From Fimbriimonadaceae bacterium (GTDB lineage: Bacteria > Armatimonadota > Fimbriimonadia > Fimbriimonadales > Fimbriimonadaceae): 64,000 bases of DNA. Below the pieces are notes generated by a model. That model ran no database searches. It was not told the DNA's origin and saw only the letters and a list, made by a program, of their open reading frames with translations. Each line of letters begins with the position of its first letter. The stretch's first letter is position 1. Location: NCBI GenBank assembly GCA_026129685.1, contig JAHCHO010000008.1:62001-126000 (forward strand), given 5' to 3'. Both the position numbers and the translations under genes were made by a program. Below are positions 3,359 through 46,046 of this stretch, piece after piece.

Positions 3359-3822
3359 AGGAGTTCGAGATCGACCTGTTCGAATCCAACGTCGTCCGCG
3401 ACGGTGGACGACCGGTGCGAGGCGACCTCCGGCATCGCGACCCCGACGCCCGCCATGTCGAGCGAACGCTCGGAATCAAAGTGCAGTTCGATCAGTCCCT
3501 TCTCGAACTCGCCCGAAGGGGTGGTGCGCAGTTGCAGGACGAAAGTCAACGCGAGGGCGGCGGTGACGGCCAAGGCGGTTGCGGGTCGCCAGGCGAGCGC
3601 CCACCGGCTTTTCTTGACGGGACGCGCCAACGCGAGCAGTTTCTCGTTCAGCTCGCTGCGCCAGGCCAGGCTGAGTTCGTCCTCGGGGGACGAGGCGACC
3701 ACGTGTCGTACCGCGCAGGACGCCTCGAGGAGATCGTCCAGTCGGCGGTCGTCGGCCTCGCCAAGGTTCGGTCCGCCGTTGGCGGAGGCGAGGACTCGAT
3801 CGTAGAATTCGCGTTCGGTCAT
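3355..3822 (-). CDS. Putative membrane anti-sigma factor
   Basis: A 155-aa protein with an acidic helical N-terminal half (MTEREFYDRVLASANGG), one membrane segment at about residues 75-99 (WALAWRPATALAVTAALAL) and a short outside tail. This is the topology of RseA-type anti-sigma factors, which hold an ECF sigma factor at the membrane. I chose the ATG at 3822 because GAGGT lies about 9 nt upstream and this start leaves 4 nt after the sigma gene stop; a longer start at 3843 would overlap the sigma gene by 17 nt. No zinc-binding HxxxCxxC motif is seen, so it is not a ZAS-type factor. The assignment rests on topology and on lying directly after an ECF sigma gene. Confidence 0.65.
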   Translation of the reverse strand: MTEREFYDRVLASANGGPNLGEADDRRLDDLLEASCAVRHVVASSPEDELSLAWRSELNEKLLALARPVKKSRWALAWRPATALAVTAALALTFVLQLRTTPSGEFEKGLIELHFDSERSLDMAGVGVAMPEVASHRSSTVADDVGFEQVDLELL

Positions 3823-3826
3823 GAGA

Positions 3827-4405
3827 TCAGGACCTCGTATCAAGGTATCCGGTCAAAACTTCTTTCAGATGCGCTCGTGCCAGGAACAGTCGGCTCTTGA
3901 CGGTGCCGATTGGGATGCTCAGGACGTTCGCGATCTCGTCGTACTGCATGTCTTCGCGGTCGTGCAACACGAGCACGGAGCGCAATTTGTCGCTCATGGC
4001 GCCGATGGCCTCGTTGACGACGCGCTGCAGTTCTTCGTCGAGCACCATCGTCTCGGGGTTCCATCGCCCGTCGAAGATGTCCATTGGCTCGTCGGTTTCG
4101 AAGGTGGCCTCGATCCGCGTTTCCGGAGGTTGGCGGTCGATCCGACGGGCGCGATCCACGCAGAGGTTGTAGGCGATTCGAAAGAGCCAGGTACGGAGAG
4201 GCGCGCGCCCGTCGAAGCGTTCGAAGCTTTGGAACGCCCTCAGGAACACGTCCTGGGTGATGTCGGCCGCTTCTTCGCGATCGAGCACGAACCGTCGGAC
4301 GAACCCGAATACTCGGTGTTGGTACGCGTCGACCAACTTCCCGAACGCCTCCAAATCGTGGCGTCGGACTCGGTCGATCAACGCGAGTTCGTCGGCTCGT
4401 TCCAT
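3827..4405 (-). CDS. ECF RNA polymerase sigma factor (sigma-70 family)
   Basis: A 192-aa group 4 sigma factor that directs RNA polymerase to a specific promoter set, most likely envelope-stress genes given its partners. Region 2 is visible as DLEAFGKLVDAYQHRVFGF followed by REEAADITQDVFLRAFQSF and PLRTWLFRIAYNLCVDRAR. Region 4 carries the helix-turn-helix in MQYDEIANVLSIPIGTVKSR. The ATG at 4405 gives the usual MERADELALIDRV opening; a start at 4450 would add 15 residues with no family resemblance. The anti-sigma and RseB-like genes follow directly in the same direction. Membership in the ECF family is secure; the exact subgroup was not determined. Confidence 0.93.
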   Translation of the reverse strand: MERADELALIDRVRRHDLEAFGKLVDAYQHRVFGFVRRFVLDREEAADITQDVFLRAFQSFERFDGRAPLRTWLFRIAYNLCVDRARRIDRQPPETRIEATFETDEPMDIFDGRWNPETMVLDEELQRVVNEAIGAMSDKLRSVLVLHDREDMQYDEIANVLSIPIGTVKSRLFLARAHLKEVLTGYLDTRS

Positions 4406-4513
4406 CGATGCGAATGCCGCTCTCGTCAGGGATGCCGCGTGACTCCGCATGGCCTACCGGGGATAACGCGCGGCCACCGCCATTGTTCGGTAGGTCCCCC
4501 CATACAGGACGAG

Positions 4514-4541
4514 GCGCGGGCCCAAAGACTGGGTCCCGCGC
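4514..4541 (-). terminator. Terminator-like hairpin after the barrel-like gene
   Basis: GCGCGGG pairs with CCCGCGC and the inner CCCA pairs with TGGG, with a single bulged T and a 5-nt loop. The hairpin starts 21 nt after the stop of the minus-strand gene at 4563-5063. No clear T-run follows, so termination may be weak or Rho-assisted. Confidence 0.45.
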
Positions 4542-4562
4542 GCTCGTCGGCACACCACGAGA

Positions 4563-5063
4563 TTAGAGTCGGATACCGATGGTCACCGCAAACCCGGACA
4601 CTTCGTCCCGGGCGTTGCCCAGCCAGCGGCCCTCGACGAACATCGAGTTGGCGCCTCGCTGGAAGTCGTAGCCGACCCCCAACTGGTAGGCCATGCGGGA
4701 CTCGTTGCCGGTGACGGGCGTTTTCACGAAGCCCATGCCGATGCCCGCGAAGTAGTACATCTCGTTCCGGCGGCTGACGTAGTTCACGAGGACGGGCACG
4801 CTGCGGAAGTCGCCTTTGCTCGCGTAGTCCACCGAGAGGGAGAGGGAACTGCTCATGCCGTCTGGGCCAGAGGCGTACTTGAGGTCCTTGAGTTTGTAGT
4901 CGGCGCCCAACACGAACCAGTTGGCACCGGCGTCGCGGGCTTTCTTCTTGCTGGGAAAGAAGAATCCGCCCTTGACCGAAATGCCGACGGGCTTGGTTTC
5001 CTGGGCCGGGGCGACGACCACGGCGAACACGCCCAGGGCGCAAATACACGCGAATCGCTTCAT
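4563..5063 (-). CDS. Small exported protein, probable outer-membrane beta-barrel
   Basis: A 166-aa protein with a clear signal peptide (MKRFACICALGVFAVVVAPAQ). The mature part alternates short Gly/aromatic strands: GISVKGGFFFPSKKKARDAG near the start, YYFAGIGMGFV and YQLGVGYDF in the middle, and a terminal VTIGIRL strand ending in Leu. This pattern is typical of small outer-membrane barrels of the OmpA/OmpW-like kind. The ATG at 5063 is preceded by AAGGAT, a good ribosome site; the open frame extends further upstream but without protein-like sequence. No specific ligand or role can be read. Confidence 0.65.
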   Translation of the reverse strand: MKRFACICALGVFAVVVAPAQETKPVGISVKGGFFFPSKKKARDAGANWFVLGADYKLKDLKYASGPDGMSSSLSLSVDYASKGDFRSVPVLVNYVSRRNEMYYFAGIGMGFVKTPVTGNESRMAYQLGVGYDFQRGANSMFVEGRWLGNARDEVSGFAVTIGIRL

Positions 5064-42694: not shown

Positions 42695-42745
42695 GGGCTC
42701 CTGCCTGGCGGTTGGTCGGCGGGACCGGTATCATCGAAACGCCCC

Positions 42746-43798
42746 ATGGTCGTCACCGAAGCCGCCGTTCTCGATGCCCTGCGCGCCGTCAAGGACCCCG
42801 ATCTCCACCGCGACATCGTGACGCTGGGGTTCGTCAAGGAACTTGACATCGACCACGGGAGTGTCGCCTTCACGATTGAACTGACCACCCCCGCTTGCCC
42901 GGTCAAGGACCAACTCCGCGATCAGGCCGACACCGCCGTCCGAGCGGTTCGCGGGGTGACCGACGTGCGCATCGAGATGACCGCCCAGGTGCGTCCGCGC
43001 ACGCCATCGCCCGAGGAGCTGTTGCCGAACGTGAAGCACGTGATCGCGATCGCCTCGGGGAAGGGCGGCGTCGGCAAAAGCACCGTGAGCTGCAACCTCG
43101 CGATCGCTCTGGGCGAGAAGGGCGCGAAGGTCGGCCTCATGGACGCCGACGTCTACGGCCCCAGCATCCCCCTCATGATGGGCGCGGTGGGCGAACGTCC
43201 GATGACTCGCAACGAGAGAATCGTCCCGATCGCCCGATACGGCATCCAGATGATGTCGCTCGGTTTCCTCCTCGAAGAGGGTCAGGCCGTCCTGTGGCGA
43301 GGTCCGATGGTCGCCGGCACCGTCAAGCAGTTGCTGACCGATGTCGACTGGGGCGATCTCGATTACCTCTTGGTCGACCTACCGCCCGGCACCGGCGACG
43401 CCCCCATGTCGCTCGCCCAACTCGCCCCCTTGACAGGGGTGGTGATCGTCACAACCCCCCACCATGTCGCCGCAAACATTGCGGGCAAGTCGGTCCAACT
43501 CTTTCGGCGGCTCAACTCCCCGATCCTGGGCGTGATCGAGAACATGTCGTTGTTCGTATGCCCGAACTGCAACGAAACGACCCGAATCTTTCACGGAGCG
43601 AGCGGCGAGGACATGGCCAAGGAATTCAAGGTTCCCTTCCTGGGCGCGATCCCCCTCGACCCGGCGATCAGCGAAGCATCGGACGAGGGTGTGCCGTCCC
43701 TGGTCGCCCATCCGTTGCGTCCGCAGGCGGAGGCCTTCCGCCATATCGCGGGCGAGCTGGCTCGCCAAGCGAGTATCCGGGCTCACGCGCGCAAATAG
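42746..43798 (+). CDS. mrp: Mrp/ApbC iron-sulfur cluster carrier with DUF59 domain
   Basis: A 350-aa cytoplasmic P-loop NTPase that carries and transfers Fe-S clusters. The N-terminal DUF59/MIP18 domain (about 1-85) has ALRAVKDPDLHRDIVTLGFV and TTPACPVKD. The Mrp domain starts VIAIASGKGGVGKSTVSCNL with the deviant Walker A Lys111, followed by MDADVYGPSIPLMMG and DYLLVDLPPGTGDAPMSLAQ. The cluster-binding cysteines are in VCPNCNE (CxxC). All elements are intact. The gene is divergent from GH127 and followed by the split nucleotide-sensor gene after 65 bp. Confidence 0.95.
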   Translation: MVVTEAAVLDALRAVKDPDLHRDIVTLGFVKELDIDHGSVAFTIELTTPACPVKDQLRDQADTAVRAVRGVTDVRIEMTAQVRPRTPSPEELLPNVKHVIAIASGKGGVGKSTVSCNLAIALGEKGAKVGLMDADVYGPSIPLMMGAVGERPMTRNERIVPIARYGIQMMSLGFLLEEGQAVLWRGPMVAGTVKQLLTDVDWGDLDYLLVDLPPGTGDAPMSLAQLAPLTGVVIVTTPHHVAANIAGKSVQLFRRLNSPILGVIENMSLFVCPNCNETTRIFHGASGEDMAKEFKVPFLGAIPLDPAISEASDEGVPSLVAHPLRPQAEAFRHIAGELARQASIRAHARK

Positions 43799-43863
43799 CC
43801 GTACCGGAGGGCCAAGGGACGCGCTAAGCTGAGCATGCCCCGCTGTGATGCGGGGGAGGGACG

Positions 43864-44298
43864 ATGGCAAAACCGCGCGTGTACTTGGCGGGTCCGATCT
43901 CGGGATGCAACGACGATCAGCGAACTCAGTGGCGGAAGGAGATTCGCCGGGGGTTCGGAGAGGAGTTCGATTTCGTGGATCCCACCGACAACCTCGTCGG
44001 GCACGACCGCTCCGACTACGAGGTGGTCGCCGCCGACATTGTGGCGATTCGGGAGTGCGACGCGGTGCTGGCGAACATGTGGCGCGAGTCCATCGGCACC
44101 GCCTTCGGAATCCTGCACGCGCACTCGGCGGGCCGGGTCGTGGTCGTCAGCGACCCCAACTTCATCAACAACCGGATGATCTCGTTCTACGCCGACGCGG
44201 TCGAACGCACCCTCCCTTCCGCTCTGAACGCGATCCGCAAGCACCTCCTTGCGCAAAACCGCATCCTCGGGATCGAGAAGCGCGACGGGACGACGTAG
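43864..44298 (+). CDS. Nucleoside 2-deoxyribosyltransferase-like domain, N-terminal part of a TAG-interrupted gene
   Basis: A 144-aa product with the deoxyribosyltransferase-like opening KPRVYLAGPISGCNDD (2-17), a DYEVVAADIVAIRECDAVLA core and IGTAFGILHAHSAGRVVVVS. The family's catalytic Glu in GTxxE is Gly here (G-T-A-F-G), so it may bind rather than cleave nucleotides. The C-terminus QNRILGIEKRDGTT is not part of this fold: it is the first strand of an ATP-cone whose remainder, PFAREKLASAVRKAC, follows the TAG stop in the same frame. GGAGG precedes the ATG. Domain call moderately sure; the interruption is directly visible. Confidence 0.75.
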   Translation: MAKPRVYLAGPISGCNDDQRTQWRKEIRRGFGEEFDFVDPTDNLVGHDRSDYEVVAADIVAIRECDAVLANMWRESIGTAFGILHAHSAGRVVVVSDPNFINNRMISFYADAVERTLPSALNAIRKHLLAQNRILGIEKRDGTT

Positions 44299-44328
44299 CC
44301 TTTCGCCCGGGAGAAACTCGCTTCCGCC

Positions 44329-44979
44329 GTGCGGAAGGCGTGCCTCGACGCCGGCCAAAGCGACCTCGCCCCGCCCCACGCGATCGTCACCCAAACGCTC
44401 TCGCTGCTTCTTGCCGGCTCCGACGAGGCACGCGCCGTCTCCTCGACCGAAATCCGCGATCGAGTCTGGGAATCGCTCGCCACCTTGGCCGCCGATCCCT
44501 CGGTGGGCGACGACTACGACCAGATTCGCCGCGCCTGGGAGAGTCACGAGGCCCACGACAAGCCCCGCGAAGAGGTCGCCGCACCGACGCGCGGCATCGC
44601 CGTCGCGGAGAAGCCCCTCGAGACCCCGGTCCATACGGTGGGGAACCACTCCACGATCTGGGGGCACCGGATCGGACCGGAGGCTTGGCGCATCTTCGAA
44701 GAGATCGTCCGGGTAAACGGCATTACCGAGGTCGTCTTCGGGCCCTTCCAGAACACGGGCAACCCGCCGCGCAAGCCCCACGTTCGCCTCGTCGCCTCGA
44801 AGATCCCCAACCACATCGAAGGGAAATGCTACGACAAGGGCCCAAAGGGCACCCTGCAGACGTTCCAGATCCGGGTCGCCAACCCCGAAGAGCGGGATAC
44901 GATCCTACGGGTGGTTCGTGACCATCTTGTCTCCCTCGGCCACGTGCGTTCGAGCGCCTTCGAGCCCGTGGACGTGTAA
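44329..44979 (+). CDS. ATP-cone-like domain and unknown C-terminal domain, downstream part of the interrupted gene
   Basis: A 216-aa frame beginning at a GTG with no close ribosome site, in the same frame as the gene at 43864 and following its TAG at 44296-44298. Joined across the stop, KRDGTT-x-PFAREKLASAVRKAC then SSTEIRDRVWESLATLAADP reads as an ATP-cone, the nucleotide-binding module of ribonucleotide reductases and NrdR. A GAG-to-TAG change would explain the stop. The region after residue 95 (WGHRIGPEAWRIFEEIVRVN, then RLVASKIPNHIEGKCYDKG) is not recognised. It may be a dead fragment, a separate small protein, or the readthrough part of a 371-residue protein. Confidence 0.6.
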   Translation: MRKACLDAGQSDLAPPHAIVTQTLSLLLAGSDEARAVSSTEIRDRVWESLATLAADPSVGDDYDQIRRAWESHEAHDKPREEVAAPTRGIAVAEKPLETPVHTVGNHSTIWGHRIGPEAWRIFEEIVRVNGITEVVFGPFQNTGNPPRKPHVRLVASKIPNHIEGKCYDKGPKGTLQTFQIRVANPEERDTILRVVRDHLVSLGHVRSSAFEPVDV

Positions 44980-45017: not shown

Positions 45018-46046
45018 ATGAGCGACCTCGTCATTGGCGTCGATCTTGGCGGCACGAACGTCCGGGCGTGTGCTTTCACCCCCGGCGGGGCGCGCGCTAC
45101 GGAGACCTTTACGAACCCTTCCCGCGCCCAAGAGGGGATCGAACCGGTGATCGACGCGTTGGGCCACACGATCATGCAGGCGCTGGAGGCCGCCCGGACG
45201 CGTCCCCGGGCGGTCGGCATCGCCATCCCCGGCCACATCGACAACGCGCGCGGGCTCGTTCGCTGGGCGCCCAACTTCGGTTCTTACGTGGACGGAGTCT
45301 TTCGCTACTGGGTGGACGTGCCCATCCGTGAGCCGCTCCAACGCCGGATCGGCGACCTACCGATCCTCATGAACAACGATGCCAATCTGGCGGCCCTGGG
45401 CGAATACCTGTTCGGCTCCGGAAAGGGGAAGGCGAAGACCCTCGTCATGTTCACCCTTGGGACCGGGGTCGGTGGCGGCGTGGTGATGTCTCCCGACTCC
45501 GTTCTCGGAGAGGCGCGGGGACCGCTCGTACTGATCGGCGGCAATCTCGGCGGCGCCGAACTCGGCCACTTTGTGGTGAGCGACGGCGGCGTCGAGTGCA
45601 ACGCGGGAAGTTACGGCGCGCTCGAAGCCTATTGCCAGAGGGACGCCATCATCCGGCGCGCCCAGCATCAACTCCGTCGGGGCCGCAAATCGCTCTTGCT
45701 CGACCTGTGCGAGGGCGACCTGAGCAAGGTCACGCCCCGACTCATCAGCGAGGCCGCCGACAAGGGCGACGACGTCGCGATCGAGGTCTGGGAGGATGTC
45801 GGCCACTACCTCGGCATCGGCATCGGGAGCGCGATCAACGTGTTCGCCCCGGAGGTCGTCGCCATCGGGGGCCAGATCTCCAAGGCGGGGGAGTGGATTC
45901 TTGGTCCCGCCCGCAAGACGGCCCGCAAGGTGGGCGTGCCCCAGCTGTTCGATTTCGCCACCATCACGCTGGCCGAAGAACTCGACGACGCGGGGATGCT
46001 TGGCGGCGCCGCCCTGGCGGTGGAGGGCCTCAAATGGAACCGCTAG
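45018..46046 (+). CDS. ROK-family protein, putative sugar kinase with altered zinc site
   Basis: A 342-aa protein of the ROK (repressor, ORF, kinase) family. The phosphate-binding loop GVDLGGTNVRAC (7-18), GIAIPGHIDN, the catalytic Asp in ILMNNDANLAALGEYLFGSG and LGTGVGGGVV are intact, so glucose- or sugar-kinase activity is likely. The signature normally reads CxCGxxGCxE; here it is ECNAGSYGALE, with only the first Cys kept, so the structural zinc is probably lost. No helix-turn-helix precedes the domain. The 3' end overlaps a small frame at 46034 by 13 nt. Confidence 0.9.
   Translation: MSDLVIGVDLGGTNVRACAFTPGGARATETFTNPSRAQEGIEPVIDALGHTIMQALEAARTRPRAVGIAIPGHIDNARGLVRWAPNFGSYVDGVFRYWVDVPIREPLQRRIGDLPILMNNDANLAALGEYLFGSGKGKAKTLVMFTLGTGVGGGVVMSPDSVLGEARGPLVLIGGNLGGAELGHFVVSDGGVECNAGSYGALEAYCQRDAIIRRAQHQLRRGRKSLLLDLCEGDLSKVTPRLISEAADKGDDVAIEVWEDVGHYLGIGIGSAINVFAPEVVAIGGQISKAGEWILGPARKTARKVGVPQLFDFATITLAEELDDAGMLGGAALAVEGLKWNR

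What the first reader, a model, noticed from the sequence alone, without database searches (positions are those of the whole stretch)
43864..44979. In-frame TAG splits a deoxyribosyltransferase-like / ATP-cone fusion
Seen: the frames at 43864-44298 and 44299-44979 are the same frame, separated by one TAG at 44296-44298. Read across it, KRDGTT-x-PFAREKLASAVRKAC forms a normal ATP-cone start, and one base (GAG to TAG) would explain the stop. The stop lies inside a domain, not between domains. Established: ATP-cones sense ATP/dATP in NrdA/NrdR. Inference: an intact 371-residue protein joins a nucleoside-binding domain that has lost its catalytic Glu (GTAFG) to an ATP-cone and an unknown C-terminal domain, a possible nucleotide-pool sensor. 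The stop could be a mutation, an assembly error, or recoding.
Basis: partly seen in the sequence, partly recalled or inferred. Interest (0 to 1): 0.75.

Follow-up and report, generated by a model that had tools for sequence, protein, structure and literature searches.

The report
Private nonsense codon in three-domain sensor gene
One genome of a little-known bacterial group carries a stop codon in the middle of a gene that is intact in relatives from at least five phyla; the stop itself is ordinary (a recent mutation or a sequencing slip), but the gene belongs to an apparently undescribed family that joins a catalytically altered nucleoside-binding domain to the ATP/dATP-sensing domain of ribonucleotide reductases and a C-terminal domain of unknown fold.

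Summary
One frame, 43864-44979, is broken by a single TAG at 44296-44298, and it is the only such in-domain break found in the 64-kb window. Sixteen relatives from other genomes (Armatimonadota, Pseudomonadota, Acidobacteriota, Gemmatimonadota, Planctomycetota) have no stop there: 15 have Glu (GAA or GAG) and one has Val. The same-genus homologue is intact, 370 aa and 57% identical. Downstream sequence is as conserved as upstream. The 44 tRNA genes found include no CTA anticodon, and TAG ends 11 of 27 training genes here. So the stop is a recent private nonsense substitution or a sequence error, not recoding.

The intact family is real: an NDT-fold domain whose catalytic Glu is Gly in 17 of 17 members (the viral stand-alone relatives examined keep Glu), an NrdR-type ATP-cone, and a ~115-aa C-terminal domain without a convincing Pfam or PDB relative. 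In a second, divergent lineage the same first two domains carry a different C-terminus. Distribution is sparse and patchy. I found no paper describing this architecture. Most likely it is a nucleotide-pool sensor whose effector is the C-terminal domain. That function is inferred, not shown.

The parts
43864..44979 (+). Whole frame of the interrupted gene (371 codons plus TAA)
   Evidence: homologues full length over the same span
43864..44208 (+). NDT-fold (nucleoside 2-deoxyribosyltransferase-like) domain, residues about 1-115; catalytic Glu position is Gly82 (44107-44109)
   Evidence: Pfam sub-threshold PF05014; AF2 plus Foldseek to NDT, DNPH1, MilB/BcmB; HMM alignment to Rcl and T. brucei NDT; Gly in 17/17
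44263..44553 (+). ATP-cone domain, residues about 134-230, interrupted by the stop
   Evidence: PF03477 E 6.7e-10; nearest solved structures NrdR, then NrdD and NrdB; Foldseek 5olk NrdB
44296..44298 (+). In-frame TAG at codon 145; relatives have Glu here (15 of 16), matching the Glu of NrdR cones and Glu15 of E. coli NrdA
   Evidence: PMC12662201 for the role of Glu15
44620..44976 (+). C-terminal domain of unknown fold (predicted helix, four strands, helix), motifs HxTIWG and EGKxxDxGxKGTxQxFQ
   Evidence: AF2 pLDDT 83; no PDB match with E below 0.016; weak DUF2103 similarity E 0.085
42716..43798 (+). Upstream neighbour, Mrp/NUBPL-type Fe-S carrier P-loop NTPase, itself ending in TAG
45018..46046 (+). 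Downstream neighbour, ROK-family protein, itself ending in TAG

Best explanation
The gene is a recently broken copy of a rare, patchily spread three-domain protein. Shown: relatives are intact and have an amino acid (nearly always Glu) where this genome has TAG; all domains look conserved on this lineage until recently. The TAG is therefore a private nonsense substitution (about 0.78) or a consensus error (about 0.19); functional read-through is about 0.03. Translated as it stands, the gene makes only a 144-residue NDT-like fragment that ends at the start of the cone, so sensing and output are lost. Inferred for the intact family: the NDT-fold domain keeps the pocket residues Tyr7 and Asp66 but has Gly instead of the nucleophilic Glu, so it binds a nucleoside or nucleotide without transferring the sugar; the NrdR-type ATP-cone binds ATP or dATP and changes shape or oligomeric state; these two inputs together switch the C-terminal domain, which is the effector. 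The core (NDT-like plus cone) is found with two different C-termini, as expected for a sensor with exchangeable outputs.
For: Intact same-genus homologue, 57% identity, no stop. Full-length relatives in other phyla. Column 145: Glu codon in 15 of 16, Val in one, stop in none. No clear excess loss of conserved residues downstream in this genome compared with its sister (28 versus 25 of 71 columns at 75% conservation; upstream 15 versus 15 of 64). 44 tRNA genes, none with anticodon CTA; TAG ends 11 of 27 training genes in the window. Glu to Gly at the catalytic position in 17/17, while the stand-alone viral, phage and plasmid relatives carry a GTxxE-type motif (in five of 44 the profile alignment puts it slightly out of register). 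Pocket residues Y7 and D66 kept in 16 of 16 and 16 of 17; cone residues K139, F147, K151 in 17/17. Second architecture L026/L027 with the same core and a different C-terminus.
Against: No ligand, partner or phenotype is known. Gene neighbourhoods are not conserved between phyla, so context gives no pathway. Arg140 (Arg10 in E. coli NrdA) is not conserved, so the cone may bind nucleotides differently. The C-terminal domain has no assigned fold, so calling it an effector is a guess. Loss of one catalytic residue does not exclude another chemistry. The NDT match to Pfam is below its gathering score (25.6 versus 28.8 bits). The tRNA search covers a 99% complete assembly only.
Confidence: 0.5

Rival explanations
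1. The TAG is a base error in the assembly and the gene is intact in the living cell.
For: One codon differs from the Glu codons of relatives; downstream frame not decayed; only break of its kind in 64 kb, so either one error or one mutation would do.
Against: The assembly is good (18 contigs, 99% complete, 0.12% contamination) and no other frame break was seen in 64 kb, so the error rate seems low; recent nonsense mutations in sparsely held accessory genes are common (general knowledge).
Confidence: 0.19
2. TAG is read through by recoding or suppression and produces both a short and a long protein on purpose.
For: Downstream frame looks selected.
Against: No CTA-anticodon tRNA among 44 found; TAG is an ordinary terminator here, including for both flanking genes; no relative has a stop there; RNA after the stop is not unusually structured (z -0.54).
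Confidence: 0.03
3. The family is an enzyme with altered chemistry (for example a glycosidase using another residue such as the near-invariant Glu75), with the cone as allosteric on/off switch as in ribonucleotide reductase.
For: Near-invariant NMWRES-G motif including Glu75 (16 of 17) next to the pocket; cones in RNR control enzyme activity (PMC12662201); YtoQ, the best solved-structure match by sequence, also lacks Glu at this place.
Against: The position of the nucleophile itself is Gly in every member; no member with known activity.
Confidence: 0.25
4. The family is an anti-phage or genome-conflict protein that senses dNTP-pool change during infection.
For: Sparse, patchy distribution over phyla and a tree in which a Longimicrobiales-order copy falls among acidobacterial ones; the divergent copy in L037 sits directly before a HEC-07 candidate defence gene, a UvrD helicase and a PD-(D/E)XK nuclease; Fic genes beside two copies.
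Against: PADLOC has no model for the protein; the neighbours identified for other copies are mostly housekeeping genes; not found as a fusion in the plasmid, phage or viral collections.
Confidence: 0.25

Closest known systems
NrdR (Zn-ribbon plus ATP-cone transcriptional repressor)
   Same: The ATP-cone is most similar to NrdR cones, including the Glu-Pro-Phe and Lys motif.
   Different: No Zn-ribbon; NDT-like domain in front and an unknown domain behind; Arg140 position variable.
ATP-cones of ribonucleotide reductases (NrdA, NrdD, cone-bearing NrdB)
   Same: Same domain, conserved Lys139, Phe147, Lys151 and Glu at position 145, corresponding by motif to Lys9 and Glu15 of E. coli NrdA.
   Different: Not attached to a reductase.
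Nucleoside 2'-deoxyribosyltransferase / DNPH1 / MilB family (PF05014)
   Same: Fold and pocket residues Tyr7 and Asp66.
   Different: Catalytic Glu replaced by Gly in all 17 members; below the Pfam cut-off.
YtoQ (solved structure 8of6)
   Same: Best solved-structure match to the first domain by sequence (E 4e-4); also lacks Glu at the catalytic place.
   Different: Separate protein without a cone in the matched chain; function not established here.
DUF2103 (PF09876, predicted metal-binding)
   Same: Weak similarity at the start of the C-terminal domain (E 0.085; 2 of 14 members).
   Different: Far below the cut-off (13.2 versus 22.4 bits).

Membership tests
ATP-cone (PF03477) | Profile match over the gathering score | tested here: met
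   39.8 versus 25.8 bits; intact homologue 37.7 bits
ATP-cone (PF03477) | Nucleotide-contact residues of the hairpin (Lys9, Arg10, Glu15 in E. coli NrdA) | tested here: inconclusive
   Lys 17/17 and Glu 15 of 16 relatives, but Arg at the Arg10 position in only 5/17
ATP-cone (PF03477) | Binding of ATP/dATP | not testable with these tools
   needs ITC or a structure
Nucleoside 2'-deoxyribosyltransferase | Fold | tested here: met
   Foldseek E 1.4e-6, target TM 0.80 to 7o62
Nucleoside 2'-deoxyribosyltransferase | Catalytic Glu in GTxxE | tested here: not met
   Gly in 17/17
Nucleoside 2'-deoxyribosyltransferase | Pfam PF05014 gathering score | tested here: not met
   25.6 versus 28.8 bits
NrdR | Full-length NrdR match (Zn-ribbon before the cone) | tested here: not met
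   TIGR00244 23.1 versus 124.65 bits in the intact homologue, cone part only
DUF2103 | Profile match over the gathering score | tested here: not met
   13.2 versus 22.4 bits
Programmed stop-codon read-through / pyrrolysine-type recoding | Suppressor tRNA with CTA anticodon | tested here: not met
   44 tRNAs, none CTA
Programmed stop-codon read-through / pyrrolysine-type recoding | Stop conserved in relatives | tested here: not met
   no stop in 16 relatives
Known anti-phage defence system | Match to a PADLOC model | tested here: not met
   none for the window protein, L006 or L026

The most novel reading that the evidence does not exclude
An undescribed modular family of two-input nucleotide sensors: a pseudo-deoxyribosyltransferase that reads a nucleoside or nucleotide and an NrdR-type ATP-cone that reads ATP/dATP jointly gate exchangeable C-terminal effectors, spread horizontally and possibly used in phage defence through dNTP-pool sensing.
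Probability: 0.3. Interest if true: 0.75.

Novelty: new variant of a known kind. Interest (0 to 1): 0.45.

Why it matters
ATP-cones are known mainly from ribonucleotide reductases and NrdR. A recurrent fusion to an NDT-fold domain that has consistently lost its catalytic residue, plus exchangeable C-termini, would be a new type of nucleotide-pool sensor and gives a clear set of intact proteins to test. The stop itself matters little: it is a private loss or an error, and it could cause annotation pipelines to miss the gene or split it.

Tried and rejected
Recoding or suppression: rejected on the tRNA set and TAG usage. Multiple frame breaks as a sign of a poor assembly: rejected, the other candidates are gene boundaries or weaker than another frame. 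Structured read-through element after the stop: none. Antisense ORF as the real gene: rejected on codon score and on the conservation of the sense protein. Phage or plasmid origin: no fusion in viral contigs, phages or plasmids; only stand-alone NDTs with a GTxxE-type motif. C-terminal fold by Foldseek: no meaningful match. DUF2103 as its family: too weak, and too few members hit; a profile-profile test could not be run because no DUF2103 sequences were obtained. Conserved operon: none across phyla. No open-access paper on the combination turned up.

Full report
Observation. The frame 43864-44979 reads ATG ... TAG(44296-44298) ... TAA and would encode 371 residues if the TAG were sense. The codon score marks both sides as coding in this frame. 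A window-wide scan for stops flanked by 60 open coding-like codons on each side gave seven places; 10030 and 14842 score better in another frame, 2393, 21996, 31946 and 35997 look like ordinary ends of one gene and starts of the next, and 44296 alone falls inside a protein domain.

Relatives. The window lies in a 3.94-Mb, 18-contig, 99% complete genome. A same-genus genome has an intact 370-aa homologue with 57% identity; the public record is Chthonomonas sp. UBA2387, DDSP01000048.1. A scan of GTDB contigs gave full-length relatives in two Gammaproteobacteria, a Longimicrobiales bacterium and an acidobacterium, and one cut off by a contig end in a planctomycete. Wider searches with the alignment gave 3 of 154 genomes in the order of the Longimicrobiales member, 7 of 399 in the class of the acidobacterium, 2 of 109 in one gammaproteobacterial order, 2 of 154 in the planctomycete's class, and 2 of 291 in the window's own phylum, both in one genus. 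The family is real, rare and patchy. In the tree a copy from the Longimicrobiales order falls inside the acidobacterial clade, which suggests horizontal transfer.

The stop. At codon 145 the relatives have Glu in 15 of 16 (GAA or GAG) and Val in one; none has a stop. Downstream of the stop this genome is about as close to its sister as upstream (61% upstream, 64% in the C-terminal domain, 50% in the cone, 36% in the linker), and it has not clearly lost more of the conserved residues than the sister has (28 versus 25 of 71 downstream, 15 versus 15 of 64 upstream). The stop is therefore recent on this lineage or an error. Recoding is very unlikely: the 44 tRNA genes found, read by ARAGORN, include no CTA anticodon, TAG ends 11 of 27 training genes in the window and ends both neighbouring genes, and the RNA after the stop is not unusually stable. 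Reads would be needed to choose between mutation and error; I favour mutation because no second frame break was seen in 64 kb.

Domains. AlphaFold2 on seven sequences gave pLDDT 76. Foldseek matches the first domain to 2'-deoxyribosyltransferases (7o62, E 1.4e-6, target TM 0.80), DNPH1 and CMP glycosidases, and the second to the ATP-cone of NrdB (5olk). HMM alignments to Rcl/DNPH1 and to T. brucei NDT place Gly82 on the catalytic Glu of the GTxxE-type motif. Gly is present in 17 of 17 family members, whereas Tyr7 (16/16) and Asp66 (16/17) of the pocket are kept. Of 44 stand-alone viral, phage and plasmid relatives, 39 align with Glu at this column; in the other five the printed motif (for example GTMIELGWAD or GTVWEIGVA) contains the Glu slightly out of register. 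The loss is thus a property of the fusion lineage, including its divergent branch.

The cone resembles NrdR most. The stop hits the Glu that the solved NrdR cones also have; by the motif it corresponds to Glu15 of E. coli NrdA, whose side chain bonds adenine N6 of dATP (PMC12662201; the register with NrdA rests on the KRDG-x-x-E motif and my knowledge of that sequence). Lys139, Phe147 and Lys151 are invariant; the position of Arg10 varies.

The C-terminal domain is conserved in 14 members (HxTIWG; EGKxxDxGxKGTxQxFQ). AlphaFold2 gives pLDDT 83 and a helix, four strands and a helix, but no PDB entry matches with E below 0.016. Pfam shows only a weak DUF2103 similarity (E 0.085 here, 2 of 14 members). 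Two divergent relatives, L026 and L027, keep the NDT-like and cone domains but carry a different end, with a likely coiled coil in L027.

Context. In the window the gene lies between an Mrp/NUBPL-type Fe-S carrier and a ROK-family gene, different from its sister's neighbours (histidinol dehydrogenase downstream). No neighbour is shared across many phyla. Leads are a Fic gene divergently upstream of two copies (L006, L033), a true NDT gene tail-to-tail in two genomes of the acidobacterial class (L010, L035), and, for the divergent copy L027 (L037), a same-strand run with a HEC-07 candidate defence gene, a UvrD helicase and a PD-(D/E)XK nuclease.

Mechanism. Shown: architecture, loss of the catalytic Glu, conservation of several key residues of the cone, a private stop. 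Inferred: the first domain binds a nucleoside or nucleotide without turning it over, the cone reads ATP versus dATP, and together they switch the C-terminal domain. In this genome the product would stop before the cone, so the function is lost unless the TAG is a sequence error. I found no paper that describes this fusion (related searches), but the held library is open-access only.

Verdict. The stop is ordinary. The family is a new variant of known parts with a plausible but untested sensor role. Interest 0.45.

Noticed in passing
L037 (G568:C316) about 3366-4840; same gene as L027: A divergent family member is also broken: its first ~25 residues lie in one frame and the rest in another about 0.2-0.25 kb further on, as if extra sequence had come in. 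Two of 17 copies being broken fits a dispensable accessory gene.
   Followed up: partly
L037 3812-10155: Divergent NDT-like/ATP-cone gene followed on the same strand by a HEC-07 candidate defence gene, a UvrD helicase and a PD-(D/E)XK nuclease.
   Followed up: partly
L006 4852-5745 and L033 9096-10247: A Fic/DOC-family gene lies divergently upstream of the fusion gene in a gammaproteobacterium and in a genome from the acidobacterial class.
   Followed up: partly
L010 7239-7772 and L035 6330-6815: A full PF05014 deoxyribosyltransferase gene (E 1e-28 and 4e-27) sits tail-to-tail with the fusion in two acidobacterial-class genomes; further surrounding genes are also shared, so this may be simple synteny.
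   Followed up: partly
window 43783-44814, minus strand: A 343-aa antisense ORF spans most of the gene and is longer than either sense piece; automatic annotation could pick it instead.
   Followed up: yes
L004 5613-7016 (same-genus genome): An AAA_21 (putative AbiEii-type) ATPase gene and a DUF433 gene lie just upstream of the intact homologue.
   Followed up: no
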